Assembly (NCBI GenBank): GCA_002069025.1
Contig: MWBK01000005.1
Coordinates: 1 to 25,286, forward strand
Source: Bacteroidetes bacterium ADurb.Bin302
GTDB taxonomy: Bacteria > Bacteroidota > Bacteroidia > Bacteroidales > Paludibacteraceae
Length of the DNA: 25,286 bases
Reading direction: 5' to 3'
Shown here piece by piece: positions 381-23,658 of this stretch. The notes below the pieces were generated by a model. It was not told the origin of the DNA. It made no database searches and was given only the letters and a program-made list of their open reading frames with translations. The position numbers were made by a program, and so were the translations under genes. How positions within the stretch are numbered: the first letter of the stretch is position 1; every line of letters begins with the position of its first letter.

Positions 381-520
381 AGTCAATTACCCATGACTGA
401 AGTCACGGGCTTGAGGCTCTGCAAAAATTCAGGACACTCGTCTGGGTGACTGACTTCACACCCCTGTAACTCCAAAGTATATCTGGAGTTACGTGTTCTA
501 AACTCTATGTTCCTTGCTCC
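361..520 (-). ncRNA. Putative omega/reRNA overlapping the tnpB 3' end, with guide
   Basis: TnpB nucleases use a right-end-derived RNA made of the 3' part of tnpB and the element end, followed by a guide from the flank. Here the tnpB stop (383-385) practically coincides with the element end, so the scaffold would lie almost wholly inside the last part of tnpB and include the hairpin at 390-409. The guide would be the next ~20 bases on the minus strand (about 380 to 361), read from the antisense of the interrupted small gene. The 5' boundary at 520 is approximate; only the 3' geometry is supported by sequence. Confidence 0.45.
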
Positions 521-3556: not shown

Positions 3557-3580
3557 TGTTAATATAAAAATAAAATAATC
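3557..3580 (-). terminator. U-run terminator after the 678-aa adhesin
   Basis: Right after the stop of the 678-aa gene the minus strand reads GATTATTTTATTTTTATATT, a U-rich stretch typical of archaeal termination sites. With the TATA box at 3441-3453 it marks a break between transcription units. The rest of the 170-base gap (3409-3578) shows no convincing ORF or stable hairpin. Confidence 0.5.
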
Positions 3581-5615
3581 ATGGATTAAATGCGAATAAT
3601 AATCCACGAGTTCCTGTTTCAGCTGCTTCTGCACTAATAGAAGCGCATCCTGTAAATGTTTCCCAGTGTGCATATGGGTTTGGATAAGTATGTCCTAAGT
3701 ATCCTTCGAAATCAAAGTCATTATAGTTATAATCATAGAGATACCCTTCTGCTGCATTCCAGAATGAAATGTTATCGATGTACACATCTGCTGTAATGTT
3801 TGCTCTGATCTCAAAACCTGATAAATTGGCACCAGATGGAAGTACGATAGATGTTTCACTCCAGAGTGGATTAGCACTGCCGCCAGCTATATGATATACG
3901 ATATCTGGATGGGTATCGAATTTAAGTATTATTGTGACTCTATGATCGGAGTAGTTTAATAACTTGGAGGATTTAATATGGAGTCTGAGTTCGTAGTTAT
4001 CAGTTGATTGATATCCAAATAAAATTGGATCAATAGTATATATTGCAGTCCCTGTTGCTACTGGACTATATTGTATTTGTGTTATATATGCTGGTCCACG
4101 GGTATAATAACAGCAGAGTGAACTCCATGTTTCATAGTTAATCGTGTTAATTCCTCCAGTAAATAGATAAGTCACATCTATTGGATCTCGAGTGTGCGCT
4201 GGTCCAAGATCTTCATATGTATTTGTCTGGTTTTCTGCATTTGTTACAGTGAGTCTAAAACAATCATCTACGTGGAGTGGTTGGGTGCCATCTTGTGAAC
4301 CTGATAAGATGAGACTACCGGTTCCATTCCAGTTAAAAGTAAATGGGCCAAAGTATTCATGTGGCCATCCTACACCACCAGATTGGTTCCATAAGCCATC
4401 GCACAATTGAATATATGGGGTTATTGGAACAAAATTGGACCATGTAAATACAATTGGTGGTATAAATATATCACCGGTTACAATAATATTCTTTGTGCAG
4501 GTTGCAGATTCATATGCATTGGTTGCAGTGAGTGTAATAGATTTTGTTCCCACAATGCTATATGCATATGTTGGATTAACTTCAGTAGATATTGCACCTA
4601 ACTCAAAAATCCATGAATAGCTCGTTGCATTTACTGATTTATTTATGCATGTAAATTGTTTATTCTTTTGTATCTTTTCTGGGCAAGTAAAGTCTGCAAT
4701 TAAAGTAGGGGGTAAAATGGTTATAGTTTTTGTGATTGAATTAGTTTTAAAACTATCTGATACTGTTAATTTAATATCATATGTTCCGGGTGTATTGAAT
4801 ATATGATATAATTCGGGATCTGTAGTTAATGATATACCGGTTGGATTATCGCTAATTATCCATGACCATGATACTATATTTGTATTGTGTAACGATGTGA
4901 AGGTTACAGGTGCACCATTTGATGCTGGATCTATTCGTGGTATTTCTGGTTCCCATGTAAAGTCACATGCTAATTCACCACAATTAGTTGTATTTATTTC
5001 TTTGGATGATGTGAATGTAACATCACTATTAGAGCCAGTTAAGGATACTGTGTATATTGCGGGTGAAGTATATATGTGACTTGGGTTACGTTCGGTGGAT
5101 GTGGTTCCATCCCCGAAATTCCAGTTCCATGTTGTAAAAGTAATAGAGCTGGTATCTGTAAATTGTACGGGATAATTAGTGCATACTTCTTCTGGTGTAT
5201 AAGTAAAATTACAATAATCTGATGTTAATCCCCATATATAGAGAGTGCCTGATTTAGTGGGATTAAAATTTGGTATAATTTTAATAGTTACGTTTTCTAT
5301 TTGTAAATGCTCTGGGATAAGGAAAGATTCGGCACTACTAGAATTAGCATCACATGTAATGAGTTCTTCATTGATGTATAATAATATTGCTGGATCTATA
5401 TGGATAGCGGTTGTGCTATAGAATACAGTAATAGAGGGAACGTTACGTAAGTCTACATTAGTTTGAGTAAGGGATGCGTCAGTAGCATAGAATGCTACGA
5501 AGGCTTTAGGGCATTGCTGGTGATATGTATGTGGGCCAAGTGTCCAATCTGCTAACTGACAAGGTTGATCGTTATCAACTATCGAACCTATCTTAAAAAA
5601 TGGATTTTTTATCAT
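3579..5615 (-). CDS. Triple-PKD adhesin, 678 aa
   Basis: This is a large beta-rich extracellular-type protein. Residues 1-130 look like a jelly-roll or carbohydrate-binding module. They are followed by three PKD (polycystic kidney disease) domains at about 133-205 (with NWNFGDGTTSTERNPSHIYT), 216-300 and 305-380. Domains 2 and 3 have lost the FGDG loop but keep the HxFNTPGTYDIKLTV-type end. Residues 385-510 hold a Trp/Gly-rich domain and 510-625 another carbohydrate-binding-like beta-sandwich. The C-terminus is aromatic-rich (YDYNYNDFDFEGY). No signal peptide or anchor is visible, which fits a virion component rather than a secreted host protein. Its ATG overlaps the stop of the 308-aa gene by four bases (ATGA), so the two are coupled. 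The likely role is receptor binding; the ligand is unknown. Confidence 0.75.
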   Translation of the reverse strand: MIKNPFFKIGSIVDNDQPCQLADWTLGPHTYHQQCPKAFVAFYATDASLTQTNVDLRNVPSITVFYSTTAIHIDPAILLYINEELITCDANSSSAESFLIPEHLQIENVTIKIIPNFNPTKSGTLYIWGLTSDYCNFTYTPEEVCTNYPVQFTDTSSITFTTWNWNFGDGTTSTERNPSHIYTSPAIYTVSLTGSNSDVTFTSSKEINTTNCGELACDFTWEPEIPRIDPASNGAPVTFTSLHNTNIVSWSWIISDNPTGISLTTDPELYHIFNTPGTYDIKLTVSDSFKTNSITKTITILPPTLIADFTCPEKIQKNKQFTCINKSVNATSYSWIFELGAISTEVNPTYAYSIVGTKSITLTATNAYESATCTKNIIVTGDIFIPPIVFTWSNFVPITPYIQLCDGLWNQSGGVGWPHEYFGPFTFNWNGTGSLILSGSQDGTQPLHVDDCFRLTVTNAENQTNTYEDLGPAHTRDPIDVTYLFTGGINTINYETWSSLCCYYTRGPAYITQIQYSPVATGTAIYTIDPILFGYQSTDNYELRLHIKSSKLLNYSDHRVTIILKFDTHPDIVYHIAGGSANPLWSETSIVLPSGANLSGFEIRANITADVYIDNISFWNAAEGYLYDYNYNDFDFEGYLGHTYPNPYAHWETFTGCASISAEAAETGTRGLLFAFNP

Positions 5616-6538
5616 GGTATCACCACTGGATGAGTAGTATAAGCACTCGAACTATTACTATAAGTCCTTACACTAACTTCATAACTTCCGGGTATTGTGT
5701 AGGTGTGTGACGGGTGTTCTTCTGTAGAATTAGTCCCATCTCCAAATGTCCAATAATAACTTCTGGGGTAATCTCCGCTTCCAAACTTATGTATTAGATA
5801 AAATTGGATAGTTGAACCTTCTTGGGCATATGTAATAGTGGAATGCACTGTCTCGGCTTGTGGGCATGCAAAGAGTTCAACGGTCATATCCATTGATATA
5901 TTATTTATGATGTATCTTCCAGTCTCTGCATTAAGGACTTCGTAATTAGTAGTTTCTCCATTTATGCGGAAATCTCGATTATAATATGCAGGCTTTGCAC
6001 TGAAGTATATAGTAAAGTTAGAACCTGCAGTAATTTCATATGTACGTATATTTGGTTGAACGTCACCTAGTGAAGTTATATAATAGCACCCTGCTGTATT
6101 TTTTAAAGTGATTGTATATTTTTGTTCAGGGGGTGGTGGGGTTCCATTGTCAGTAGATATAGAATAAATGTATAAATTGTTATTACTCTGTTCCTGTCCA
6201 ATGAATACGGCAACATTTGCAGTTTGAAATACTTGTGGTATAGGAATTGTATTAATACCGGGTTGACTTAATGGAATTCTGATGTCGTTTAGTGGGGGGT
6301 CACCGTTTAATGAGAAGTTAACATACCCGTAACCGGTAATATTTACATATAGGTATGGTGTGTTTGTTAAATCACATAATTGGTAAATATATCCTGCATG
6401 GATTATAACAACAGGCGATCCGCCATATGTATGTAGAAAACCTTGTCCATGAAAATCCCATGATAGTAGTGTTGGATCTGCTCCGTTTTCAAGGAGAGTA
6501 TAATTTTGAAATGAGCCATTTACAATTCGTTCAGTCAT
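5612..6538 (-). CDS. Carbohydrate-binding-like / InlB-repeat / PKD protein, 308 aa
   Basis: Domain order: residues 1-130 form a beta-sandwich beginning with VNGSFQNY and resembling carbohydrate-binding or choice-of-anchor modules; a PPPP hinge lies at 134-137; a divergent InlB-like B-repeat spans about 141-224; and a canonical PKD domain spans 235-308, containing YYWTFGDGTNSTEEHPSHTY and ending exactly at the C-terminus. It follows the 158-aa gene by one base and overlaps the 678-aa gene by four bases, so these three are almost certainly co-translated. A single PKD at the extreme C-terminus suggests either an exposed tip or an interface with the next protein. The function as an adhesin is inferred from domain content. 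The ligand and virion position are unknown. Confidence 0.7.
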   Translation of the reverse strand: MTERIVNGSFQNYTLLENGADPTLLSWDFHGQGFLHTYGGSPVVIIHAGYIYQLCDLTNTPYLYVNITGYGYVNFSLNGDPPLNDIRIPLSQPGINTIPIPQVFQTANVAVFIGQEQSNNNLYIYSISTDNGTPPPPEQKYTITLKNTAGCYYITSLGDVQPNIRTYEITAGSNFTIYFSAKPAYYNRDFRINGETTNYEVLNAETGRYIINNISMDMTVELFACPQAETVHSTITYAQEGSTIQFYLIHKFGSGDYPRSYYWTFGDGTNSTEEHPSHTYTIPGSYEVSVRTYSNSSSAYTTHPVVIP

Positions 6539-6539
6539 A

Positions 6540-7016
6540 TTATTGCACCTCTATTGTAAATGACATAGATGATTGGCTTATATCATTTCTACACCAAAAA
6601 TTTATGTTATATGTTCCAAGAGCAGGGAATGTAATAGTAAAGTTTTGTGTAGTAAAACTAGTGGTTAATCCATTCCCACTTATATCCCAGCGCCATGTAT
6701 GAGGTCGTTGTCCATTAAACATGCTATTATCATAGAAGAAGTGACTATATCTATTAATTGCATATACGCCTCCCGATGCAACGATAACACCGTTAATTGT
6801 TTGTGTATATAATCTTACAGTATGATCACTTTGGATATCTGTTAATACTTTGGGATTAGCATACTCTACAATTTCATTATCTACGGTAAGTTTTAGTGGA
6901 GTAAGACCTGTAGATGGTGAGATATTTATTGTTGCAGATGCGCCCGGTTCTATAGATTGCGTGCGTGGCCCAATCCATGCCCCTCTATCTGCTATTGCTG
7001 TAATCGTAAAAGCCAT
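6540..7016 (-). CDS. Short InlB-like + PKD-like beta protein, 158 aa
   Basis: Residues 1-72 resemble a divergent InlB-like repeat (TITAIADRGAW, then a GASATINISP strand and DHTVRLYT end). Residues 77-158 resemble a degenerate PKD domain in which the WxWDxSGNG loop replaces WxFGDG and the final strands ALGTYNINFWCRND are kept. The same InlB-then-PKD order is found in the 308-aa neighbour, so this may be a shortened paralogue. The start ATG 7016 is preceded by AGAGGG and, about 44 bases upstream, by a TATA-like box at 7053-7067. The gene may therefore open the transcription unit that contains the 308-aa and 678-aa adhesins. A structural or connector role is inferred. Confidence 0.65.
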   Translation of the reverse strand: MAFTITAIADRGAWIGPRTQSIEPGASATINISPSTGLTPLKLTVDNEIVEYANPKVLTDIQSDHTVRLYTQTINGVIVASGGVYAINRYSHFFYDNSMFNGQRPHTWRWDISGNGLTTSFTTQNFTITFPALGTYNINFWCRNDISQSSMSFTIEVQ

Positions 7017-9406: not shown

Positions 9407-12400
9407 TTACACCTGTAGATCTTGCCATGATGGCAACCCGTTGCTATCTATAACTAATACTTGTCCTTCTGTACCGGGCGATAATGCAACCCATGTATCC
9501 GCACCAGTGCAATAAAGAATAGAACCAGCACTTCCGGCAGGTAAAGCAAAGGAACCGTCATCATATTCTAATACACCTTCGGTGTCAGTAGTTCTAAGGT
9601 ATTTATTTGCTTGCCATGCTGGTAATTCTGCTGCTTGTTTCTCTACTGGTTTATCAGTTGCATCCCCAATCCAAACTTTCTTATTGGTTAAACTGCCAAG
9701 CTGTCCGGTTTGTGAATCTACGTAAGCTTTGTTTGCTGCATCTGTATTTTCAGTTGGTGTTGCTACATTTACGATTTTATGATTAGATGCGTTGATAGAT
9801 CCATTGACTGATAGTTTATATCCAAGGTCAGATGAAGTCTCACTGTCCCACCCCATCTGAACGTTACCTGATGGTTCAACTACTAATGAACCTGATGGTG
9901 CTGGGAACACAATAAATGGACGCTCATATCCAGTTGCACCTGCAGCACGGGTGTGGACATTAAATAAACCATAGCGACGGGTGTTGCGTGTATCTAAACG
10001 AACCAAACAACCGGGCAAGGATTGATCAATTGCACCAAAGTATGTTGTATTGATATTGTTAGCGAGTTGTAAAACCGAGTGCCCTGCTACATTACGTGAG
10101 TTAATACCACAGTCGATATCAGTACGATTTGTAATAAATTTAAGACCAGCATTATATCCAGAACCTGCTGGATGATATCTTACTGCAGGTATCTGACCTA
10201 ATACTTTCCCAGTGGTATCAGTAAAGTAAGATAATGCATTTGCAGTAGTAGATACTGGCCCGGTTATAGTTCCCATACCCGGATGAGTATGCGTTGCAAT
10301 GGATCCAGTTAATTTTGCTTCTATCTCAGATTTAAGAATATCACTATTCTTTTGAGCATTGCTTGGAGCATGAGCACTTTGACTATGATCGTATGCTATT
10401 TTACCACGATCACCACGGTATGCAGAATCTGCAGTTTCACCAAGGGCTAAACTTGAACTAATTTCAATATATTGAGTGCCAGTCCAACGATATGTCTTAT
10501 TTGTATCTTTTGCAACGTAAAGAGTATTCGTAACTCCAGTTGTTGGGAAACTTGCAAAGCTTGCGAATTCTAATATAGTACCAAGAGATTCAGGTAATTG
10601 TGAAGGCAATACTTTACCGTTTGGACCAAGTTCTGCTATACCATTTATTGTTCCTGCATCACGGAATGCCGCTGTTCCAAGATCTGGTAGATTCTGTAAC
10701 TTAGTATAATCTAATTCAGTTTCATCGACAAATATACTATATGTTTCACTGCCTGCCATATCACCAATAACGGAATCTAACCCATGACCCGGTGATATTT
10801 TATCGTCAAGATATGCAGGTGTTAAATCATTAGAGGTCACCCGGATTTTAGTAAGATTTTCTAAATCCCCGAGTTCACCATGGCTATGATCTCCTGCTGC
10901 AACAGTCCCTGTAATAGTTCCTACATTTAATGCTGCAGCATCTCCGAGGGTAGGGCGATTTGGAATTTTAGTATAATCAAACTCAGCCTCATTTACCATA
11001 ATAGATTGATGAATGTGACCATCCTCAAGCGATTGTTGGGATACTGCAAGTAAACCATTCCCGTAACTAATTTTATCAGTAATATAATCATACGTGGTGT
11101 CTTCTGCAGATATTTTAATTTTACCAAGGTTTTCTGTCACAATTGGGAGATCTGAATGCGTATGATTACCAGCAGCAACTTCATCAGCCCCTGTTCCAAC
11201 ATTCTTTGCTGATGCATTTCCTAATATAGGTAACCCACTCAAGTTGTTATATGCAATTTGAGCACCATCGCCACCATGGTGATCATGTGCATCTCCGTTG
11301 GTAACACCCCTGCTAACATCTGCTTTTGAATCGAGAATATCCATTAAATCAGTTTGATTTTCGATATCTCCAATTAGCTGACCCCATTCATTAATTGGCT
11401 TACTATTGTATAATACATTACCAGTAAGACCAATATTACCTACTACAAATAATTTAGTATCTAAATTTTCTGGAGCAAATACACTATTAACAATGAATTG
11501 CCCCCCTGCAGTAAGGCGAAGGCGTTCAATGAGGGATCCGCCTGTAGTAGGCTGTGTTGCAAATACAATATGACTGCCATTCGATGACTCGGATGCACTA
11601 ATGACACTGATACGGGCAGTATTAAGGTTCGTTCCTTCTGCAGTTCTATTATAGAAATTAATCATTCCAATAATATCATTGAATATACTGCGACCTCTTA
11701 ATATTAAAGAACTAAAACCTAATACTGAATTATTTGGATTGAGATCAATTTCTGCTTTACTAGAACTACTATTAACGGTTGCATTGACTGACAATTTCCC
11801 AAAGTCATCCATGATTACAGGTGAACTTTTTATAATTTTACCTGTAGTTCCGTCAAATCGAGTTAATGAATTTGCGGTTACACTTGCCGGACCTACTACC
11901 CGACTACCTAATGCATTGAATAAATCAGTTTGATCTGCAAGATCGCCAGTGATGCCACCCCACTCTGGGGTTGCAGTAATTTGTATCTTTCTTTCCCCGA
12001 CAGTTGGTTCAACAATTTCAATAGCAATTTGATTACCATTAATAACTTTATTAATTAAATACGATGCTGCAGTGTCAGTTTCATCTGTTTTTACATAGAT
12101 ATCTTCAGAAACACCACCACTTCCCCCACCAGTAGAAGAGATAACTAATGTTTCATTATCACCATCATTCGTCTCAGTAATGGTAATATTATCTCCGGCA
12201 ATTAATTTATTTATTAAATGACCTGCAATAGTATCATTAGAACTGATTTTAATTTTTTCATCTGATCCCCCACCAATAATTGGACAATCAGTGAAATCTA
12301 ATGTTTGACCAAGTAGATTACCAATACGTAATTCATTATTGGTTCTATCATACCCTAATTCACCATCATCTAATTTGGCACCACGGGAAGTTAAATTTAC

Positions 12401-13543
12401 ATAAGTTCCACGCTTAATTCGAATAGTGTTCATATTCCCGGTATCATATTCAAATTCAGCAGTAATTGTATAATTTTTTAATACCCGTTCTATTCTATAT
12501 GTGTATTCCTCACCAACAGACGTATCATCAATTTTTAAATCTTTTAACTTATACCCGGTAGCAGGAACTGCGTTTACTAAGTAAGAACCACCCGCGAGAA
12601 CTTGAGTTGTCCCTGCAGGATATAATATTCCATTTGTTGGGGGGAGAGTGGTGATTGTATAATATGTTTGAGTGCCTGTAGCAAACACTGCTTGGAATAC
12701 ATGATCACTTGTTATGTTTTCAAAGGTATGCTCTGGGTAAACATCCTGATAAGTAACACCATCAACTATAGTATAATCAATTAAATAATTTTCTGCAGGG
12801 TATGCTTTTACAGTTAAAGAATCTCCAGATTTTACGTATGTTACACCTGCAGGTGCGGCATAGCCCCCGGTATTTGTTGAGGTAGTTACTTTATAAAGTA
12901 TATCAGATACATCGGAACCTGTTATAATAATCGATTTAGAAGAAGTTCCAATGGTTAATGTAACATTATCAACAAATGGTGTTTTGTCTTCTACACCAAC
13001 GCCATCAATGTAAACATTCTTTATTTTTACTTTTTCAGTATCATAAATAAGATCAAAGATAATAGTTTCACCTTGGCACACTGGATAATTTCCAGCTACC
13101 GGATTTGATTTAAAGTACCCATCGTAACCAAACTGTACATAATATACAGGTAATGATATTGAACCAAATTTAAATTCTTTGAATTCAATATCATGATAGG
13201 TATCAGTATTAGATATACAAATAATATCTAAGGTCTTACTATTATTTTCTACCAGATCAATACGGCATGTTGAAAACTCCTGTCCATTATCTAGTGAATA
13301 ATCTTCTATTCGTTCGATTACTGTTTCATTTTCTGGATCATAAATAACAATAGTTGAATAACTACCCGGAACTATATTAATTGGTTTACGATACTTAAAC
13401 TCAATATATTTATGCGTCCCGAGGTATGCACCTGTTGTATCAATATGAATGGTATATGAATCCGTAGTATTAAAATGTGCAATTATGGGAGTTGATTCAT
13501 ATACGGTATCATATGTAAATGGTCCAGTTATATTATATACCAT
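9407..13543 (-). CDS. Composite tail fibre, 1378 aa
   Basis: Domain order: residues 1-210 are beta-sandwich; two divergent InlB-like repeats lie at 217-290 and 293-366; and at 371 an internal Met begins a tail-fibre N-terminus of the Mtd-N type (MNTIRIKRGTYVNL, then DDGELGYDRTNNELRIGN). Beyond this are fibre modules typical of tailed phages. Four copies of a KI.(I/V)..ND.T..YL.DK...G unit lie near 430, 480, 807 and 898. There are two DQTDL-type units, two NHTH/DHSH bead units (around 775-800 and 866-890), a block with ALGETADSAYRGDRGKIAYDHS (1034-1053), and ANKAYVDSQ followed by a KKVWIGDAT module near 1288. It lacks a chaperone-like or lectin C-terminus. GGAGGAT precedes ATG 13543, four bases after the 450-aa gene. 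Its role is most likely a trimeric fibre carrying an N-terminal adhesin head. Confidence 0.8.
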   Translation of the reverse strand: MVYNITGPFTYDTVYESTPIIAHFNTTDSYTIHIDTTGAYLGTHKYIEFKYRKPINIVPGSYSTIVIYDPENETVIERIEDYSLDNGQEFSTCRIDLVENNSKTLDIICISNTDTYHDIEFKEFKFGSISLPVYYVQFGYDGYFKSNPVAGNYPVCQGETIIFDLIYDTEKVKIKNVYIDGVGVEDKTPFVDNVTLTIGTSSKSIIITGSDVSDILYKVTTSTNTGGYAAPAGVTYVKSGDSLTVKAYPAENYLIDYTIVDGVTYQDVYPEHTFENITSDHVFQAVFATGTQTYYTITTLPPTNGILYPAGTTQVLAGGSYLVNAVPATGYKLKDLKIDDTSVGEEYTYRIERVLKNYTITAEFEYDTGNMNTIRIKRGTYVNLTSRGAKLDDGELGYDRTNNELRIGNLLGQTLDFTDCPIIGGGSDEKIKISSNDTIAGHLINKLIAGDNITITETNDGDNETLVISSTGGGSGGVSEDIYVKTDETDTAASYLINKVINGNQIAIEIVEPTVGERKIQITATPEWGGITGDLADQTDLFNALGSRVVGPASVTANSLTRFDGTTGKIIKSSPVIMDDFGKLSVNATVNSSSSKAEIDLNPNNSVLGFSSLILRGRSIFNDIIGMINFYNRTAEGTNLNTARISVISASESSNGSHIVFATQPTTGGSLIERLRLTAGGQFIVNSVFAPENLDTKLFVVGNIGLTGNVLYNSKPINEWGQLIGDIENQTDLMDILDSKADVSRGVTNGDAHDHHGGDGAQIAYNNLSGLPILGNASAKNVGTGADEVAAGNHTHSDLPIVTENLGKIKISAEDTTYDYITDKISYGNGLLAVSQQSLEDGHIHQSIMVNEAEFDYTKIPNRPTLGDAAALNVGTITGTVAAGDHSHGELGDLENLTKIRVTSNDLTPAYLDDKISPGHGLDSVIGDMAGSETYSIFVDETELDYTKLQNLPDLGTAAFRDAGTINGIAELGPNGKVLPSQLPESLGTILEFASFASFPTTGVTNTLYVAKDTNKTYRWTGTQYIEISSSLALGETADSAYRGDRGKIAYDHSQSAHAPSNAQKNSDILKSEIEAKLTGSIATHTHPGMGTITGPVSTTANALSYFTDTTGKVLGQIPAVRYHPAGSGYNAGLKFITNRTDIDCGINSRNVAGHSVLQLANNINTTYFGAIDQSLPGCLVRLDTRNTRRYGLFNVHTRAAGATGYERPFIVFPAPSGSLVVEPSGNVQMGWDSETSSDLGYKLSVNGSINASNHKIVNVATPTENTDAANKAYVDSQTGQLGSLTNKKVWIGDATDKPVEKQAAELPAWQANKYLRTTDTEGVLEYDDGSFALPAGSAGSILYCTGADTWVALSPGTEGQVLVIDSNGLPSWQDLQV

Positions 13544-13547
13544 TTTA

Positions 13548-14900
13548 TTATCCTCCTAATTCATTCATAATCCAATCTTCGAGCTGTGCGGATGACATGC
13601 TGTATATATCCACCCCATATTTACTCGGAGGCAATGCACAAAATGCATAATATGTACACGTGCCTTCCATGTAAATTGCTCCAAAATTAATAGTTGACCA
13701 TGGTCCGCCATCCGGGTTTACGATCAATGACCACCGTTCAGTAGCGTTACCCTTTGCATCTATCTCTGTCTTTTTGCATACAATACCATAAAAAGAACAC
13801 AGTTCGGGTTGATGCGAACGAAATACCATAGTAGTTCCTTGGGCTGGATCATTTGGTCCAGTAATTCTTACATGTGATGGTACAACAGAAGTAGCGTTTC
13901 GACAAGGCCCTGTAACTTTTCCATAAATATCACATGGGCGCTGTGTTAAATCTAAATACTTTACATCACGAACGCTTATTGAAGAAAAGCAAGCAGCACT
14001 CTCTGCATCCACTTCTAATATTGCAATTACTTTAGACCCAAATGCAGGATCTGTAAACTGTGAGAATGAACGGGTATCAAATGAAAATGGTATCACTGCT
14101 TCCATTCCAGCTGGTAATGTTACGGCATCAGATTTAAGAATACTACGCCCTGCTGGATTATCACCTACTGCATAATATGATACTGTGCCCGATGCAACAT
14201 CATCTTCATCATTTTTGATAACGATTTTACCAGTAAGTGATTGAATATTTGATAAATTTTTACCATAGTTAAGAATATCTACAGATATCTCATTACAAAT
14301 ATCTATGGGATCATCATCAAATATTGCTTTTAATACGTAATCATCATAAATTGCACTAATATAAAAAGTATTAAATAATCTTTTATCATATTCAGGGCTA
14401 TATGGTTTAATTACTTCAAATCCTTTAAATATATGTCCAGTTTTAATATTTGATACTGATACAGAAACAGAATCACCTTCGGGAATGCATGCTGGATCTA
14501 CTGCACTAATATTTATATCAGCAGGCGGGGTTCCCATAACTGATACACTATGACATCCGTGTTTTCCTTGTTCATATTTTAATAATATACGTATTTTATC
14601 ATATTGTAAAATATTATTCATTGATAAATGCAGATTAAAATAACCAGTGCCGGGGGATCCAGTGTAAGTTGGAATTGCTGTAAAATTAATTGAACCAACT
14701 GGGACACTGACTTCACACCCTGCAAATTTATAACCTTCCCGCATTTTCATAGGAAGATTTACTGCAAATGAATCACCTTGTGACTCACAATCAACTGCGT
14801 TACCAATCTCGTAAACTAAAGTACCACTCCAATTTCTAAAAACAAGGTTGTCCCCATATATTTCAATGGTTACACATTTACATTCTTTAGTTGTTGCCAT
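13548..14900 (-). CDS. Cys-containing beta-domain virion protein, 450 aa
   Basis: The protein begins MATTKECKCVTIEIYG. Residues 1-110 and 112-197 look like two InlB-like or Ig-like beta repeats, the second ending DDYVLKAIFDDD. Residues 203-300 resemble a CARDB-type beta-sandwich (NEISVDILNYGKN, GTVSYYAVGDN, PFSFDTRSF). Residues 305-450 form a Cys-rich region with alternating aromatic strands (TCTYYAFCALPPSKY) and a helical end (SSAQLEDWIMNELGG). It has 13 or so cysteines, which suggests disulfides or metal sites. It sits between the two very large fibre genes, with a perfect AAGGTGAT before its start and four bases before the 1378-aa fibre. A connector or adhesin between fibres is the likeliest role. 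No enzyme motif is seen. Confidence 0.65.
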   Translation of the reverse strand: MATTKECKCVTIEIYGDNLVFRNWSGTLVYEIGNAVDCESQGDSFAVNLPMKMREGYKFAGCEVSVPVGSINFTAIPTYTGSPGTGYFNLHLSMNNILQYDKIRILLKYEQGKHGCHSVSVMGTPPADINISAVDPACIPEGDSVSVSVSNIKTGHIFKGFEVIKPYSPEYDKRLFNTFYISAIYDDYVLKAIFDDDPIDICNEISVDILNYGKNLSNIQSLTGKIVIKNDEDDVASGTVSYYAVGDNPAGRSILKSDAVTLPAGMEAVIPFSFDTRSFSQFTDPAFGSKVIAILEVDAESAACFSSISVRDVKYLDLTQRPCDIYGKVTGPCRNATSVVPSHVRITGPNDPAQGTTMVFRSHQPELCSFYGIVCKKTEIDAKGNATERWSLIVNPDGGPWSTINFGAIYMEGTCTYYAFCALPPSKYGVDIYSMSSAQLEDWIMNELGG

Positions 14901-14911
14901 AGATAATCACC

Positions 14912-17900
14912 TTAGTCAAAGCACCCGCCATCAACAATGGTATTACGTATATAACCCCCACTGAAATCATACCCGGAATTTGTAAAAGTAATTCCAGTAT
15001 TTACTATCATATTACCACCATTATCAGAGAACATTGTTAATGTATTTCTTGATGCAACTGGAGATTTTGACATAAATGCTGGTGTTTTATTAATAACATC
15101 GCCATCTGCATTGATTGTCAAAATTTGATTCTCGCGAGCATTTGTAATTATAACATCAGTTAAATTATCCAATGTGTGAGAATGATTACCTGCAGCAACA
15201 TCGGAAGCAGTATTACCAATCTTTAAAGATAATTCTTGATCAGTTAATGTTAAACCGGCGCCAGTGATAGTAATTGGTGAGTGCTGGTCAGGAATTTCAG
15301 GCAGGACTTCAAGTGGAACTTTACCTAATGCATCTAATGGTGCGTATCCATTTGCAATACCCTTGTTTAAAACATTTTCAGGTGTATAATCTAATAATGG
15401 TTCATACTCACTATGGGTATGTTCTGCGGTTGCAAAGTAATCTGGATTTAATCCATTGAATAATGTTGAATTAGTTGCAACTCCGTCTATTGGGAGATAA
15501 ACTCCTGTGTGATTATGCCCGGTTAATGAAAATGCACTTGAATCTAAACCATCAAGTTTATCAGAATCAGTTGCTTTAGCAGTAATACCAAGATATAAAT
15601 CATCGTGGTTATGAACAGTATCTGCAAAGCCGGTATGTGTATGAGATACCGTTGCGAATTCACTATCTGCTTTACCATTTAACAATAAACTGTTTACAGA
15701 TACACCATCAATTGCTAAATAATCACTATCGTGATTGTGATCACTTACCGCAAAACCACTATGAGTATGGTTACCTGCAGCAACTTGACTTGCCCCAGTC
15801 CCAATACTTAATGCCAATTCTTGAGCAGTTAAGGTAAGACCATTGCCACTTATAGTAACTGGATCATGGTAATCTGGTAAATAAACATCTGAAATTTTGG
15901 TTTCACTATTTAATGGAACGTAACCATTTGCTACACCTTTGTTAGCAGCATTTTCTGGTGTAAATCCTAATTCAGTTTGGAATCCTGTATGTGTATGAGT
16001 AGTTAATGAAAAAGCACTTGAATCCAATCCATCTAATTTATCAGAATCAATTGCTTTTGCGTTTATTCCAAGATATGCAGCATCATGGTTATGTGTGGAT
16101 ACTGCAAAATAACTAGTATCGTGCCCATCTAATAACTCTGAATCTACTGCCTTTCCTGCGATAGGTAAATATATACCGCTATGAGTATGATTACCTTCAG
16201 CATAACTACCTGCAGATGTACCAAGTTGAATACCTAAATCTAATGGGACTAATGTAATATCTGCACCAGATTTTCCATTAACAACTTGAATATATCCAGA
16301 TGGTACAAGAAGTTCAACCCATTGGACCCCATCAAATATGTAAGTCTTATTTAAATCTGTACGTATACATACATCTCCTTCATTTGGCACAGCAGGATAT
16401 GCAACCCCAACAGAAACATCCGTAAGGTTAATACTATACATCATTCCGGGGGGAATCTTACCTTCGCTATTTAACGGAGCATATCCATTTGCAATACCCT
16501 TGTTATCTATGTTTTCAGGAGTATATCCGAGAGCAGTCTGATACCCGGCATGAGTATGGTCATCAGTTGCAAAATCACTCGCAGATAACCCTTCTAATAA
16601 ACTAGAATTTGCAGCAGTCCCATTAACGGGTAAATAAATACCAGTGTGATTATGCGTTGCAGTTGCAAAATCTGACGAAGTTAATCCATCAAGTTTATCA
16701 GCGTCTGCTGCTTTTGCATTTATCCCAAGATATGTAGTGTCGTGATTATGTGTAGTTGATGCATAATCATTATGTACGTGTATAGAGCTTGCAAAATCAC
16801 TATCTAACTTTCCATTTAAACGTGTGCTATTTATTGCAGTTCCATCAATTGCTAAATATTCTGCATCATGCTCATGATCTATTGTAGCATAATCGCTATG
16901 TGTATGATTACCCGCAGCAATTTCTGATGCACCACTACCAATACGTAATGTTATCTCTTGTCCAGTTAATCCTATACCATTACCACTTATAGTAACTGGT
17001 TCATGTTGGGTTGGTAAATTAGCGACTGGAACTTTACCACTCGCATCTAATGGTGCATAACCATTATTTACTCCTTTATTTGCTATATTTTCAGGAGTAT
17101 AACCTAATGCTGCTTGATAATTTGCATGCTGATGTTCTGCTGTTGCAAATGCACTTGAGTCTAACCCATCTAATCTATCAGAATCTGATGCCTTATCAGA
17201 TATCCCAAGATATGTTGTATTATGGTTATGTGTAGTTAATGAAAATGCAGTAGAATCAAGGCCATCGAGTTTATCGGCATCTGTCGCTTTTCCTTCAATT
17301 GGTAAATATATACCAGTATGATTATGTGTAGTTGATGCATAATCCGTATGTATATGTGAAGCGTTTGCAAATGCAGTATCGGATTTACCATTTAACAATA
17401 AACTGTTTACAGATACACCATCAATTGCTAAATAATCGGTATCATGGTTATGATCATCTGTTGCAAAACCACTATGGGTATGATTGCCAGCGGCGATATC
17501 AGTTGCAGTGCTGCCAATTCTTAAAGATAATACTTGATTCTCCGTTATAGTCAAACCATTGCCAATGATTGTTACCGGGGAATGTTGTGTTGGTAAATAT
17601 ATTAATGGAATTTTAGTATTGCTGTCTAATGGAGCATAACCATTTACACTACCACGGTTTGCAACGTTTTCAGGAACATACCCTAACTGCAATTGATACT
17701 GATCATGGGTATGGGATGAAGATACATCAATCTCAGATAAATCTGCATTAATTACAATGGTATTAGAGGATTCGATAACATCTACACCGTCGCCACCTAC
17801 GAGAGTTCTAAATTGTAATTCATCCCCATTTTCTTGTAGGAAAACTTTTGCCCCAGTCCCAACATTAATTGCAGAAGTCATATCTGCAGAAGTTAATTGT

Positions 17901-18079
17901 TGTCCACTGTCTGTCCAAACGCCATTGTCCCATATCCAAATAGTATTAGTCGAAGCTACATTTGCATAAGAACCGGGCAATGCAGTTAGGTGTTCTATTT
18001 CTAAATCTATTTGAGTTTGGAACCAACCAAGAAAAAGTTCAGTGGTAGTTCCTCCCCCTCCTTGTGGTGGAAAAGCCAT
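14912..18079 (-). CDS. Giant repetitive tail fibre with 23 HxH motifs, 1055 aa
   Basis: Residues 1-120 form a fibre base with VGTGAKVFLQENGDELQFR, a pattern common in phage fibre necks. Residues 123-968 are a repetitive shaft. A unit G[YF].PEN..N.G..NGY.PL starts at 133, 326, 518, 705 and 897 (steps of 193, 192, 187 and 192). In between are eleven .DKLDGLDSSAF-type beads and 23 HxH motifs, many exactly 32 or 10 residues apart. The C-terminus (970-1055) is non-repetitive and ends DGGCFD. HxH motifs in the T4 long tail fibre tip coordinate iron along the trimer axis, and the same is inferred here. Start ATG 18079 is preceded by AGGGGGAATC, 13 bases after the 118-aa gene. The third repeat carries a different insert (about 548-600). 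Confidence 0.85.
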   Translation of the reverse strand: MAFPPQGGGGTTTELFLGWFQTQIDLEIEHLTALPGSYANVASTNTIWIWDNGVWTDSGQQLTSADMTSAINVGTGAKVFLQENGDELQFRTLVGGDGVDVIESSNTIVINADLSEIDVSSSHTHDQYQLQLGYVPENVANRGSVNGYAPLDSNTKIPLIYLPTQHSPVTIIGNGLTITENQVLSLRIGSTATDIAAGNHTHSGFATDDHNHDTDYLAIDGVSVNSLLLNGKSDTAFANASHIHTDYASTTHNHTGIYLPIEGKATDADKLDGLDSTAFSLTTHNHNTTYLGISDKASDSDRLDGLDSSAFATAEHQHANYQAALGYTPENIANKGVNNGYAPLDASGKVPVANLPTQHEPVTISGNGIGLTGQEITLRIGSGASEIAAGNHTHSDYATIDHEHDAEYLAIDGTAINSTRLNGKLDSDFASSIHVHNDYASTTHNHDTTYLGINAKAADADKLDGLTSSDFATATHNHTGIYLPVNGTAANSSLLEGLSASDFATDDHTHAGYQTALGYTPENIDNKGIANGYAPLNSEGKIPPGMMYSINLTDVSVGVAYPAVPNEGDVCIRTDLNKTYIFDGVQWVELLVPSGYIQVVNGKSGADITLVPLDLGIQLGTSAGSYAEGNHTHSGIYLPIAGKAVDSELLDGHDTSYFAVSTHNHDAAYLGINAKAIDSDKLDGLDSSAFSLTTHTHTGFQTELGFTPENAANKGVANGYVPLNSETKISDVYLPDYHDPVTISGNGLTLTAQELALSIGTGASQVAAGNHTHSGFAVSDHNHDSDYLAIDGVSVNSLLLNGKADSEFATVSHTHTGFADTVHNHDDLYLGITAKATDSDKLDGLDSSAFSLTGHNHTGVYLPIDGVATNSTLFNGLNPDYFATAEHTHSEYEPLLDYTPENVLNKGIANGYAPLDALGKVPLEVLPEIPDQHSPITITGAGLTLTDQELSLKIGNTASDVAAGNHSHTLDNLTDVIITNARENQILTINADGDVINKTPAFMSKSPVASRNTLTMFSDNGGNMIVNTGITFTNSGYDFSGGYIRNTIVDGGCFD
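15671..15724. repeat. 54-bp exact direct repeat, copy 1
   Basis: Identical at all 54 bases to 17384-17437. It encodes AIDGVSVNSLLLNGK in the fibre shaft. Such identity in an AT-rich gene with otherwise diverged repeats points to recent copying or gene conversion between shaft units, or to purifying pressure at the DNA level. Confidence 0.85.
17384..17437. repeat. 54-bp exact direct repeat, copy 2
   Basis: Partner of 15671-15724, about 1.7 kb away in the same orientation. Recombination between the two would delete or duplicate about three super-repeat units in frame (1713 bp, a multiple of 3). Confidence 0.85.
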
Positions 18080-18092
18080 CTATGATTCCCCC

Positions 18093-18449
18093 TTAATATA
18101 TCCCACCGTGTTCTGTGAGGATTAATGATAAACAAGATCCATTTCCATAAAATCTAATATTAATCCTTTCTGATGAATCTACCGGAAATGTAAATAATGA
18201 TAATGCATTTACTGGTAGATTTCCTCCACTATTTAAATACTCAATCGTTTCATCACTTCCTACTTTCCGCACTATCGCGAGTCGTGCAGAAATAGAAAAT
18301 GAACACGAGAGAGTGAAATACGAGCACTCGGTATGTAGCACCGATGCAATATCTTCAGATAGCATTTCTACCCCTGAAGATACCGGCGCCTTGTATAACC
18401 GGGCTCGTTTTATAGATCGAATGGTCACATTCTCGTTACTAATTGCCAT
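18093..18449 (-). CDS. Hypothetical beta-rich virion protein, 118 aa
   Basis: I chose ATG 18449, because GGTGA at 18455-18459 lies five bases before it. A GTG at 18458 would add three residues after a GGAGGT. The protein is beta-rich, with RSIKRARLYKAP, then MLSEDIASVL, ARLAIVRKVGSD, and a paired-strand end (NALSLFTFPVDSSERINIRFYGNG). The pattern NSGG.LPVNALSLFTFPV..SERINIRF is like small beta-sandwich virion proteins of tailed phages, but I cannot name a family. It is the first gene after an intergenic gap with a TATA box and precedes the giant fibre, so it may be the fibre's attachment or capping protein. A 19-bp segment encoding SEDIAS also occurs in the 1124-aa gene. Confidence 0.6.
   Translation of the reverse strand: MAISNENVTIRSIKRARLYKAPVSSGVEMLSEDIASVLHTECSYFTLSCSFSISARLAIVRKVGSDETIEYLNSGGNLPVNALSLFTFPVDSSERINIRFYGNGSCLSLILTEHGGIY
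18343..18361. repeat. 19-bp exact repeat, copy 1 (encodes SEDIAS)
   Basis: GATGCAATATCTTCAGATA matches 21056-21074 exactly. Both copies are in the same strand and reading frame, giving LSEDIAS in the 118-aa protein and in the second LamG end of the 1124-aa protein. Confidence 0.7.
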
Positions 18450-18454
18450 GGCAT

Positions 18455-18459
18455 TCACC
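18455..18459 (-). promoter_or_regulatory. Shine-Dalgarno GGTGA deciding the start at 18449
   Basis: GGTGA on the minus strand is five bases before ATG 18449. An additional GGAGGT at 18466-18471 is at normal spacing for the GTG at 18458, so two closely spaced starts may both be used. Confidence 0.5.
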
Positions 18460-20283: not shown

Positions 20284-23200
20284 TTACTCATCTCCGGCAT
20301 GCTCCTTTGATGCCATGTAATATTCTTCAAAACGCTTAAAGAGGAAATTGACTTTGACTCTGCATGTGGCTGGTGAATAGACATTAATTACGTTTGGCGC
20401 AATACTGCTGAATTTTAAGTAATCATATGCTGGGAGAGCTCCTCGATATCCTGCCTTTTCGGCTTCTTCGGCGTCCCTATAATTGAAGTATTTATCAAAT
20501 GTAACAGCTTTCCCACTTTGCATGGTAAGCTCTTGACCGTTAATGATTACTTTTACTTCTGTGGGTAATGTCCAATATTCGCCCTCGGCAAATAATGCTT
20601 CTACGGTATGTTCTCGGCATACACCTACGAAATTTGCGACTGCGGATATACCATTATGCCAGTATTCTTGACCATCAACTATGAACTTTTCCATATGGTA
20701 ACCCGGATCTGCGGCAGCAGTAACAGTTCCACTAGAACCATCAGGCCATGCTATAGATTCAGCAAATGAATATAATGCTTCTACTGGATTAGATGAAGAA
20801 GTTCCAATACTATCGGCGGTATTTTCTGCATATAGTGTAACTGTATAATTGCCCGGTGTAGTATAAGTGTGAGTGGGATTTTCTTCGGTTGAATAATTTC
20901 CGTCCCCGAAGTCCCAATGCCACGAATCTGCTCCAAATGCAGAGGTGTTTACAAATTTCCGAGTAATTGAAGTAGTTCCTCGTTCGATGACATATGAACG
21001 GAATGTGGCGGTGAAGTCGCCAACTAAGTAATTAAGTTTACTATATTCATGAATAGATGCAATATCTTCAGATAAAAGATTTTGTTTATAAATCATGAGT
21101 TCGCCAAGGGCATGCTTAAATCCTTTATTACGTATCCATTTTTGATTGGTATAATTTTGCCCATTTCCTGCATTAATGTAATATAAGGTTCTTCGTATCG
21201 GGCGACCATAACCATAGAAAGAATTTTGACCAGTTATGCTATTTATTGAAGGGATTGTAATAGAGTATTGAGATCCATCTGCATTTTTGACAGGAGACTC
21301 ATTTATGTAGGGATACAGGGTGTTATTTAACTTTACGAGGTGCAGCTGCGCCCATTGGTTTAGCGGGAGTGGTGTTGATGGGGTATCTAGTCGATACGTA
21401 TCAGATGAGTTGATGGTGATACCTAATTTTGGAATAGCTGTATCATCTGTGTAGATATCTATGATTAAATCCATTGTAGAGCCTAGATCAAGTAGAACAG
21501 AGTAGTAAAGGGTTTCTGATGAACTGGTAATTGTATATTCTGGAATTGCAGTATGGAACCATGTCGATATAGTAAAGTTACCAGATGGTGAAATTGGAAG
21601 GGCATATGGGATATATAACGCTCCGTTGTAAAGGAATTCGTTTTCTAATCTACCAGAGCGCCATGCTGCAGTTTCACCATATAAAATGGTACCATTAAAA
21701 CCATTAATGACTTCACTACCGCTTCCGCACATTGGGTAATATGCAGCACCATTATTTAATACGAGGTTACGTAAGTTTGGTTTAACTGTTATAGTTTTAG
21801 TAATTGATTTAGTAATACTTCCAGAAGTTATTGTCAACGATGCGGATTTCGTAATGCTATGGGGAGTTTCATTGTAAAATATGTGACTGCAATCTTGTTC
21901 TGTATAGATTTCGGAGTCAATATTCCATTGATATGTAATGGGTAAAGATGTAGGTATAATATAGCTATTGTTAATGAATGATGCATAAAATGGAGATGGT
22001 GAAGAATCTGGGTATACGGTAAATCCTACAGTTGGAATAAGGAGATACGTATTTGATAATTCAGTGTATACTTCTGCGATGTTAGTTGATGGAAACGGGA
22101 CATCGGCATAAAATACCTCACCGAGTATTATGCCTTTTGCATGATTGGTTCCGTCACTAAGTAAGTATGAGTTGCCTGTGGATGATGATATTGGCAATGG
22201 TTCATAATAATTCTTTACTTTGTTTTCATCATAATATACATCAATACTTTGGGTCAAAGAAGAATGCCTAAATGTAAGCAATGTCCATCTAAATGGAGTT
22301 ATACTTACATTAGTGTTAAACGATATTCCATTGTTATATGTTACAATTATTTGATTATATGCATCTATCGTTGCACTAAAATCAATATCCCCTTTTAGTG
22401 TAAATAGTGTAGAGTCTTTGCAATCATTAAAGATGTAGATCCAAATACCCAATGTAAAATCAGATTGAGTAAAGAGGTCATCTGGTATAGCAGCATATCG
22501 GGGGGCATTGTCATATGTTATGAAACCATTTACACTTTCAGGGGGTATTATATCAGTTAAATTATTTACAGTATATATAAGATGATCTACATTTGGAATA
22601 TCTAATCTACCTGATGTCCATGTAGTTGAACCAACTGGATTTGTTACTGTTAGATGGGCAGTGCTAATTAAATTGTTTGAACCGCAGACATCATTTACAA
22701 GGGGCCAATATTGTGTTAGAGTTTCATAGTATGGTGTAGTGAGTGGTGCAGGTTCTGGCCCAAAGTCACTTACTTCATCTGTAGCAAGAAATTCTAATTG
22801 TTCTTCAACTTCGTGATAGTTTCTTACATAAACCCAATCCACGTCAATAGTAGATTCAACCGTTAAAAATTGGGAACGGAATACAATCTGCATTGGATCT
22901 ATTCCGGGGTGGGCCAGATTTAATACATCTTTGGGATTATCTCCAATTTGCCAGCCAATGCTATCAAGAGTAAATTGACATTCTATGATATCCCATGAGT
23001 TCTCGGTCCAATTATCTATACTACAGGTGCTAACATTTGTGCCATTTCGATTTACGTATTCTTCTCTATAAAGAAGGGAATTAAAGGAAACGTGTGCAAA
23101 TCGAGTATCGTTGAATTGTAATCCAAATGTTTCTGCAGTAGTAGCATCAAACGAATGCGAGTTACGCATACGTGCACAAACAGCAATATTTGGACCATAG

Positions 23201-23658
23201 GATGCGGAGGAGGTTAATGTAGCGGGTGTTTCATTTGAAGTAGAGGTAAGGGTTGCAACGGAACTGGCTACAGTAGTCCCCACTTGTGCCCATCCAGTGA
23301 GATCATTAAAGGTAGTGTAATAAATGAAGGTTGCTGCTGGATTAGAAACACTCGTTGCTGCTTCGTTCCCGAAGTATATATATATATAATCTTCTTGGAT
23401 AGCAATTGCTGGTACTTTTACCATAAACTTTGCAGTTGTTGCTGTTGCAGAGATGGTAGTGTATGGTAAGAGGTTATCAGATTTATCAGTAAATCGAATA
23501 TCCCCGAAGTCATTCTTACACTTATGTTCAACAAAGACATGATTGTGGGTATCTACCCCAGACGTGCGATTAATATAGATAGGAATTTGGTAATCCGTGA
23601 GCTCTATATTGCTATTGAGAATGAGATACTTTCTTTGAAATTTCCAACCGCTTAACAT
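20284..23658 (-). CDS. DUF2341 / LamG / PKD multidomain adhesin, 1124 aa
   Basis: Domains in order: residues 1-105 are a DUF2341 module (TDYQIPIYINRTSG, FGDIRFTDKSDNLLPY, VKVPAIAI.EDYIYIYFGN); 110-290 a concanavalin-like sandwich; 310-540 a LamG-type domain (SQSDFTLGIWIYIF); 545-627 a PKD-like domain; 630-875 a second LamG domain (SGNFTISTWFHT ... ALGELMIYKQNLLSEDIA); 880-955 a PKD domain with WHWDFGDGNYSTEENPTHTY; 960-1027 an InlB-like repeat; then a ~95-residue C-terminal region unlike the others. This DUF2341-LamG-PKD order is typical of methanogen surface proteins. The virus probably took it from a host to bind host glycans. GGTGAGGATGA just before ATG 23658 overlaps the previous gene's end, so the two are coupled. 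There is no signal or anchor. Confidence 0.8.
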   Translation of the reverse strand: MLSGWKFQRKYLILNSNIELTDYQIPIYINRTSGVDTHNHVFVEHKCKNDFGDIRFTDKSDNLLPYTTISATATTAKFMVKVPAIAIQEDYIYIYFGNEAATSVSNPAATFIYYTTFNDLTGWAQVGTTVASSVATLTSTSNETPATLTSSASYGPNIAVCARMRNSHSFDATTAETFGLQFNDTRFAHVSFNSLLYREEYVNRNGTNVSTCSIDNWTENSWDIIECQFTLDSIGWQIGDNPKDVLNLAHPGIDPMQIVFRSQFLTVESTIDVDWVYVRNYHEVEEQLEFLATDEVSDFGPEPAPLTTPYYETLTQYWPLVNDVCGSNNLISTAHLTVTNPVGSTTWTSGRLDIPNVDHLIYTVNNLTDIIPPESVNGFITYDNAPRYAAIPDDLFTQSDFTLGIWIYIFNDCKDSTLFTLKGDIDFSATIDAYNQIIVTYNNGISFNTNVSITPFRWTLLTFRHSSLTQSIDVYYDENKVKNYYEPLPISSSTGNSYLLSDGTNHAKGIILGEVFYADVPFPSTNIAEVYTELSNTYLLIPTVGFTVYPDSSPSPFYASFINNSYIIPTSLPITYQWNIDSEIYTEQDCSHIFYNETPHSITKSASLTITSGSITKSITKTITVKPNLRNLVLNNGAAYYPMCGSGSEVINGFNGTILYGETAAWRSGRLENEFLYNGALYIPYALPISPSGNFTISTWFHTAIPEYTITSSSETLYYSVLLDLGSTMDLIIDIYTDDTAIPKLGITINSSDTYRLDTPSTPLPLNQWAQLHLVKLNNTLYPYINESPVKNADGSQYSITIPSINSITGQNSFYGYGRPIRRTLYYINAGNGQNYTNQKWIRNKGFKHALGELMIYKQNLLSEDIASIHEYSKLNYLVGDFTATFRSYVIERGTTSITRKFVNTSAFGADSWHWDFGDGNYSTEENPTHTYTTPGNYTVTLYAENTADSIGTSSSNPVEALYSFAESIAWPDGSSGTVTAAADPGYHMEKFIVDGQEYWHNGISAVANFVGVCREHTVEALFAEGEYWTLPTEVKVIINGQELTMQSGKAVTFDKYFNYRDAEEAEKAGYRGALPAYDYLKFSSIAPNVINVYSPATCRVKVNFLFKRFEEYYMASKEHAGDE
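21056..21074. repeat. 19-bp exact repeat, copy 2
   Basis: Identical to 18343-18361. Here it encodes SEDIAS at the end of the second LamG domain, where family members typically have a helix-like L(S)xxEI motif. Confidence 0.7.

What the first reader, a model, noticed from the sequence alone, without database searches (positions are those of the whole stretch)
15176..17713. Fibre shaft with 23 HxH motifs at exact 32- and 10-residue spacings
By position, HxH motifs in the 1055-aa protein start at residues 123, 200, 210, 242, 252, 284, 316, 392, 402, 434, 444, 476, 508, 631, 663, 695, 771, 781, 813, 823, 855, 887 and 966. Most gaps are exactly 32 or 10 residues, and 76-79 occurs repeatedly where the longer segment lies. 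The regularity is seen directly. In T4 gp37 each HxH in a trimer coordinates an iron ion on the fibre axis (established). The inference is a trimeric rod with up to 23 metal sites, far more than the seven in T4. Such a fibre could be rigidified by metal or carry iron, relevant to ideas of phage-borne iron.
Basis: partly seen in the sequence, partly recalled or inferred. Interest (0 to 1): 0.78.

Follow-up and report, generated by a model that had tools for sequence, protein, structure and literature searches.

The report
Virus tail fibre with metal-clamp repeats
A tail-fibre protein of an uncultured virus carries 23 evenly spaced paired-histidine sites that probably each hold a metal ion and lock three copies of the protein together; the kind of site is known, but such a dense row of them was not described in the papers I opened.

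Summary
Confirmed: the 1055-aa ORF (14912-18079, minus) has exactly 23 HxH motifs; 17 of 22 gaps are 32 or 10 residues; shuffles give 2.6, at most 9 in 5000. It is a tail-fibre shaft: PHROG tail matches and gene order shared with a tailed-virus contig. The 32-residue unit matches T4 gp34 residues 874-896; counting on, HxH falls where gp34's triple beta-helix begins. The two His come and go together: of 139 homologue module sites 48 have both, 90 neither, 1 one. This fits an octahedral metal site on a trimer axis, as in R-pyocin and T4 fibres. Metal and axis geometry are not shown; both predictions failed (pLDDT 32 and 30). 'Far more than T4' is true, but 44 of 208 other retrieved proteins have 23 or more, up to 37. 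A syntenic fibre has 6 HxH and the two closest sequences 13-14, so most sites look dispensable. Iron carriage for entry is unsupported; weak evidence points to a methanogen host, where siderophore-receptor hijacking should not apply. Best reading: serial metal clamps that register and stiffen a repetitive trimer.

The parts
14912..18079 (-). 1055-aa tail-fibre shaft protein
   Evidence: ORF; PHROG tail families phrog_1446 5.8e-22, phrog_13892 2.2e-21, phrog_972 2.6e-19; gene order shared with L014
15176..17713 (-). Region holding the 23 HxH pairs (residues 123-968)
17096..17506 (-). Super-repeat 1 (residues 192-328): HxH spacing 10-32-10-32-32
16520..16930 (-). Super-repeat 2 (residues 384-520), same spacing
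15383..15793 (-). Super-repeat 3 (residues 763-899), same spacing
15947..16213 (-). Partial super-repeat (residues 623-711), HxH 631, 663, 695
17714..18079 (-). N-terminal 122 residues without HxH, perhaps the tail attachment
   Evidence: function inferred
14912..15175 (-). C-terminal 87 residues and stop, ending IVDGGCFD; P0002-P0004 end IIDGGNLDLV, IIDGGNLDLL, SIDCGNLDLL
18093..18458 (-). 121-aa neighbour, conserved in order in L014
   Evidence: 29% over 116 aa
18778..20280 (-). 500-aa protein, partly conserved in order in L014
   Evidence: 24% over 182 aa
9407..13543 (-). 1378-aa protein with InlB-like and Mtd_N domains, conserved in order in L014
13548..14900 (-). 450-aa neighbour, no Pfam or PHROG match; L014 has a 418-aa ORF in the same place with no blastp match to it

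Best explanation
The protein is the shaft of a homotrimeric tail fibre. Its 32-residue unit is a short neck (three chains packed together, then turns) followed by a short beta segment that carries HxH. In the trimer the three HxH pairs of a level place six imidazoles on the axis and bind one metal ion octahedrally (Fe(II) most likely, Zn possible). The main job of the serial clamps is to fix the register of three long, internally repetitive chains during folding and to stiffen the rod. Shown here: the motif, the repeat order, the homology to T4 gp34, the nearly all-or-none behaviour of the two His. Inferred: trimer, axial geometry, metal, its identity, and the role in register and stiffness.
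For: HxH count and spacing. His invariant among diverged internal repeats, 12 of 12 columns. Coupling of the two His: 72 both, 136 neither, 1 single of 209 loosely anchored sites; of 139 distinct filtered sites 48/90/1 downstream and 53/83/3 upstream; 581/72/2 of 655 interior slots in 11-residue arrays. The residue between the His is N, T, D or S in 2384 of 2709 HxH of the 209 proteins, as expected if His point in and x out. [quoted passage not shown] The same motif binds iron with six His in R1/R2 pyocin fibres and is listed for T4 gp37, P2 gpV and phi92 spikes (PMC6116203, passages); its authors propose, without data, folding reference points and a balance of stiffness and flexibility.
Against: No structure: AlphaFold monomer of residues 384-540 had pLDDT 32.4, full length 29.7. 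The gp34 match covers module positions 6-28 only; the HxH-to-901/903 correspondence is a gap-free extrapolation, and gp34 itself has no HxH. Coupling counts ignore relatedness, so their Fisher P values are not probabilities. In a smaller IMG/VR sample coupling is weaker: 31/10/4, three of the four singles in sequences that do not look like fibres; with a looser filter 44/24/10. Related fibres have 6, 13 and 14 HxH, so most clamps are not needed for such a fibre.
Confidence: 0.72

Rival explanations
1. The metal sites serve host contact or iron delivery: the fibre presents bound iron to a siderophore receptor (Ferrojan or Trojan Horse idea).
For: Proposed for HxH fibres of marine phages, e.g. 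R22Y (PMC11705849, passages and section 10); R22Y's sites too lie away from the tip.
Against: Sites run along the shaft. Weak evidence for a methanogen host: TnpB 55.5% to a Methanomethylovorans plasmid copy, the other 11 of 12 listed rows 31-35%; GGTGA before 5 of 16 starts. Such archaea lack outer-membrane siderophore receptors (recalled). No metal has been measured.
Confidence: 0.05
2. HxH pairs are on the axis but bind another metal (Zn, Ni, Co) or are only partly filled; the role is still structural.
For: T4 gp12 HxH held Zn after refolding with a Zn salt (PMC6116203); octahedral His sites in the tail fibres of archaeal virus HFTV1 were assigned Zn by geometry (PMC12494034, passages), though its gp42 has no HxH.
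Against: Iron was detected by X-ray fluorescence in the R-pyocin HxH fibre (PMC6116203).
Confidence: 0.15
3. HxH is a conserved structural or polar feature of the repeat (hydrogen bonding, pH response) without metal.
For: The same neck module is followed by other residues in 90 of 139 sites.
Against: Loss of one His alone is rare (1 of 139 downstream and 3 of 139 upstream; 2 of 655), and the solved HxH sites listed in the passage of PMC6116203 hold a metal.
Confidence: 0.08

Closest known systems
T4 gp37 receptor-binding tip, HxH iron needle (PDB 2XGF)
   Same: Serial HxH in a tail fibre; 7 motifs starting at 883-998, seven irons (PMC11705849)
   Different: T4 spacing 32, 14, 37, 14, 9, 9, no neck modules seen there; distal tip, not a long shaft; whole protein has no PDB sequence match to E 10
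T4 gp34 proximal long tail fibre neck (5NXF, 5NXH)
   Same: Module positions 6-28 match residues 874-896, E 4e-5
   Different: One copy matched, no HxH
R1/R2 pyocin fibre shaft (6CL5, 6CL6)
   Same: HxH with buried iron in a trimeric shaft (PMC6116203, passages)
   Different: One iron site in the shaft
Alteromonas phage R22Y gp12, Burkholderia phage E094 gp23, Citrobacter phage CkP1 gp267
   Same: Six, seven and eight HxH, metal inferred
   Different: About three to four times fewer; no 32/10 neck-clamp order described in what I read
Metagenomic HxH arrays with 11-residue period (P0048, P0099, P0104, P0106)
   Same: HxH-xxx-Y units (P0048); 10, 11 and 32 spacings occur together in P0106
   Different: P0048 has 32 of 33 gaps of 11 (34 HxH); this protein has neck modules after 11 of its 23 clamps
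Pfam PF12789 Phage tail repeat like
   Same: Found in P0094, which has 26 HxH
   Different: Not found in this protein, nor in P0048, P0099, P0104 or P0106

Membership tests
HxH metal-clamped trimeric fibre (gp37 / R-pyocin kind) | Repeated HxH in a tail-fibre or spike protein | tested here: met
   23 HxH, tail-fibre assignment
HxH metal-clamped trimeric fibre (gp37 / R-pyocin kind) | Two His act as one unit | tested here: met
   Coupling 48/90/1 and 53/83/3, 581/72/2; weaker 31/10/4 in the IMG/VR sample and 44/24/10 unfiltered
HxH metal-clamped trimeric fibre (gp37 / R-pyocin kind) | Homotrimer with His on the axis | tested here: inconclusive
   Monomer predictions failed; no trimer tool
HxH metal-clamped trimeric fibre (gp37 / R-pyocin kind) | Bound octahedral metal | not testable with these tools
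   Needs protein
T4 gp37 family | Sequence homology to the gp37 tip | tested here: not met
   No PDB sequence match of the whole protein to E 10; the module profile finds gp34, not gp37
T4 gp34-type neck module | YLxxxxKAxDxxLLDGLDSSxF stretch | tested here: met
   E 4e-5 to 1.1e-4 for three entries; 11 modules
Pfam PF12789 PTR | Profile match | tested here: not met
   Not among matches to E 0.1
Iron-presenting (Ferrojan) fibre | Metal used for receptor contact | not tested
   No functional data

The most novel reading that the evidence does not exclude
A tailed virus of methanogenic archaea builds its fibre shaft from alternating neck and metal-clamp modules, so that Fe(II), plentiful in its anoxic surroundings, is a stoichiometric building material (up to 23 ions per fibre) that sets chain register. 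The number of clamps is then a freely evolving length and stiffness dial (6 to 37 in relatives), and assembly would be metal-gated.
Probability: 0.25. Interest if true: 0.65.

Novelty: new variant of a known kind. Interest (0 to 1): 0.42.

Why it matters
If the sites are filled, such shafts would be very metal-dense protein rods, and a natural series from 6 to 37 clamps would let one measure how axial metals set register and stiffness. It also warns against counting HxH motifs as evidence for iron delivery: a dense array occurs here where that model may fit poorly. In the passages I read of papers found by searches the largest HxH count stated for one fibre is eight (PMC10175313); not every listed paper was opened (PMC11448403, for one, was not). 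Against that, 44 of 208 other retrieved metagenomic proteins have 23 or more.

Tried and rejected
Structure: AlphaFold of residues 384-540 with four window rows (pLDDT 32.4) and of the whole protein with five sequences (29.7); both useless, so no fold search was run. A trimer could not be asked for.

PDB by sequence: whole protein, no match to E 10; profile of P0048 11-residue arrays, no credible match.

Chance and recent duplication: rejected.

Uniqueness of 23 motifs: rejected.

IMG/VR pattern counts as prevalence: of 120 stretches with four HxH at 11-residue spacing (the scan stopped at its limit), 25 pass an HxHxxx[YF] filter, of which at least three (L099, L147, L178) do not look like fibres. 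Four HxH at 32 spacing gave 3 stretches; two decode as the same low-complexity frame, the third showed no such open frame. This pattern cannot match the window itself, which never has three 32 gaps in a row.

Archaeal precedent: HFTV1 tail fibres have octahedral His sites by its paper, but gp42 has no HxH, so it is not the same motif.

Host by neighbours: the 1124-aa protein's named PKD hits mix Methanoculleus, Methanoregula and Methanosarcina with many Bacteroidota (120 of 153 hits listed); inconclusive. TnpB hits in phages are 28-36% in the 12 of 245 rows listed, bacterial and haloarchaeal.

Close relatives of the 450-aa and 1124-aa neighbours in IMG/VR: none found; the 1124-aa protein has none in the phage records either. 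The fibre has one weak 77-residue match there. Whole genome of the window: not held.

Full report
Observation. The minus-strand ORF at 14912-18079 encodes 1055 residues. It contains 23 HxH motifs at exactly the residues listed; 17 of 22 gaps are 32 or 10 residues, four are 76-79 and one is 123. Shuffling the composition gives 2.56 on average and at most 9 in 5000.

Anatomy. Three super-repeats (residues 192-328, 384-520, 763-899) share the HxH gap order 10-32-10-32-32, and a partial copy lies at 623-711. Between them lie 76-79 residue segments with a GYTPEN-like and an NGYAPL-like stretch; the 123-residue one also carries VNGKSG. The 32-residue unit has the consensus HNHDxxYLxIxGKAxDSxxLDGLxxSxFAxxx before the next HxH; in 11 copies H1, H3, Y7, L8, G22, F28, H33 and H35 are invariant (the copies were chosen by their HxH, so the His there are by construction). 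A test without that bias: between the three super-repeats 12 of 12 columns with a His in any copy are invariant, against 68 of 137 columns overall (P 1.3e-4), while third codon positions agree in only 49-58% pairwise. The His are therefore held by selection, not by recent copying.

What it is. PHROG profiles give minor tail protein and proximal tail-fibre subunit; Pfam gives only sub-threshold matches; NCBIfam none; PDB phmmer none to E 10. Four window genes and PKD proteins match the IMG/VR locus L014 in the same order: 500-aa (24% over 182 aa), 121-aa, fibre (36% over 329 aa), 1378-aa, PKD. In the record behind L014 (92,734 bases; 8 proteins scanned with PHROGs, 9 with Pfam) there are weak portal, protease and scaffold matches and a clear tail-tube match (PF18906, 1.4e-11), beside an open frame of at least 3312 codons. 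The window is thus most likely the adhesion region of a tailed virus; it carries no capsid or packaging gene itself among the 17 ORFs scanned.

Structure by homology. A profile of the 11 units finds four PDB sequences to E 10: three are T4 gp34 (E 4e-5 to 1.1e-4), aligned at 874-896; the fourth (E 1.4) is not credible (same list). [quoted passage not shown] Counting on without gaps, H33 and H35 of the module fall on 901 and 903, the start of a triple beta-helix, where inward residues meet on the axis. This is inference; the profile match ends at 896.

Coupling of the two His. In the 92 homologues, anchoring on the neck's LDG...F and reading positions +13 and +15 whatever they hold, 209 sites gave 72 with both His, 136 with neither, one with one (some of the 136 are loose matches). 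With a stricter module filter and duplicates removed, 139 sites in 43 proteins gave 48/90/1 downstream and 53/83/3 upstream. By the downstream position 11 of these 43 proteins have only HxH modules, 21 only modules without, 11 both kinds. In 11-residue arrays, 655 slots flanked by HxH on both sides gave 581/72/2. Relatedness is not corrected. In a separate IMG/VR sample the result is 31/10/4 after requiring the aromatic residue and 44/24/10 without that filter, when unrelated and low-complexity frames enter. A nearly all-or-none pair is what an octahedral site needing both His from each of three chains predicts.

How unusual. Among 209 proteins from two searches, the window's own included, 133 have at least 7 HxH and 45 at least 23, up to 37. 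The second search listed 120 of 440 hits and was seeded with an HxH-array protein, so the sample favours such arrays; the 45 fall into 27 groups by shared 6-mers, one of 18 near-relatives. In the passages I read, HxH counts stated for one fibre are six in R22Y (PMC11705849, section 10), seven in E094 gp23 (PMC8174754, passages), eight in CkP1 gp267 (PMC10175313, passage), three in V22 gp23 (PMC10579305, passage). Two more papers mention HxH without a larger count (PMC11821841; PMC11990801; passages). The searches were 14, 15, 18, 67, 68, 75, 94 and 95, in an open-licence library; not every listed paper was opened. Bartual 2010 and the Ferrojan Horse paper are not held and are known here through citing papers or recall.

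Variation among close fibres. The fibre in the same place in L014 (P0004) has 6 HxH and 1 neck module; P0002 and P0003, the closest sequences, have 14 and 13 HxH with 4 and 5 neck modules; this protein has 23 and 11. The number of clamps evolves fast, so most are not essential to such a fibre; this fits a modular stiffness or register device better than a dedicated iron cargo.

Metal. R-pyocin fibres hold iron in six-His HxH sites, and the authors suggest, without data, roles in folding register and in stiffness and flexibility (PMC6116203, passages). T4 gp12 held Zn after refolding with Zn (same). The archaeal virus HFTV1 has octahedral His sites in its tail fibres assigned as Zn by geometry (PMC12494034, passages), but its gp42 has no HxH. 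The metal here is unknown.

Host. Evidence is weak but leans to a methanogen: TnpB at 383-1588 is 55.5% identical to one on a Methanomethylovorans hollandica plasmid, the other 11 of 12 rows listed (of 812 records) being 31-35%; GGTGA stands within 20 nt of 5 of 16 starts against 2.6% of 20-nt stretches; of five minus-strand TTTATATA boxes three lie within 70 nt upstream of a start (genes 6540-7016 and 18093-18458), one farther upstream of TnpB and one inside a gene. TnpB is mobile, and the PKD protein's named hits include many Bacteroidota. If the host is an archaeon, delivery through outer-membrane siderophore receptors is not an option (recalled knowledge).

Verdict. A real and strongly conserved serial HxH shaft, a dense variant of a known kind; trimer, axial geometry and metal remain to be shown.

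Noticed in passing
window 383-1588: TnpB-family RNA-guided nuclease gene (NF040570) near the contig end, 55.5% identical to a TnpB on Methanomethylovorans plasmid pMETHO01.
   Followed up: partly
window 9407-13543: 1378-aa protein with an InlB-like repeat (PF18998) and a Mtd_N match (PF18454, 2e-6, above its cut-off), the N-terminal domain of a receptor-binding protein diversified by a retroelement in another phage (recalled); no reverse transcriptase match among the 17 window ORFs scanned with Pfam.
   Followed up: no
window 3579-7016 and 20284-23658: Three PKD-domain proteins plus a DUF2341 + Laminin_G_3 + PKD protein in a virus tail region, resembling cell-surface proteins.
   Followed up: partly
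P0048 (903 aa): 34 HxH, 32 of 33 gaps exactly 11 residues: one of the most regular HxH arrays among the 209 proteins counted.
   Followed up: partly
L014:10498-11754 and window 13548-14900: Between fibre and 1378-aa-type gene each virus has a protein of similar size (418 and 450 aa) without a blastp match, possibly a swapped receptor-binding or chaperone gene.
   Followed up: no
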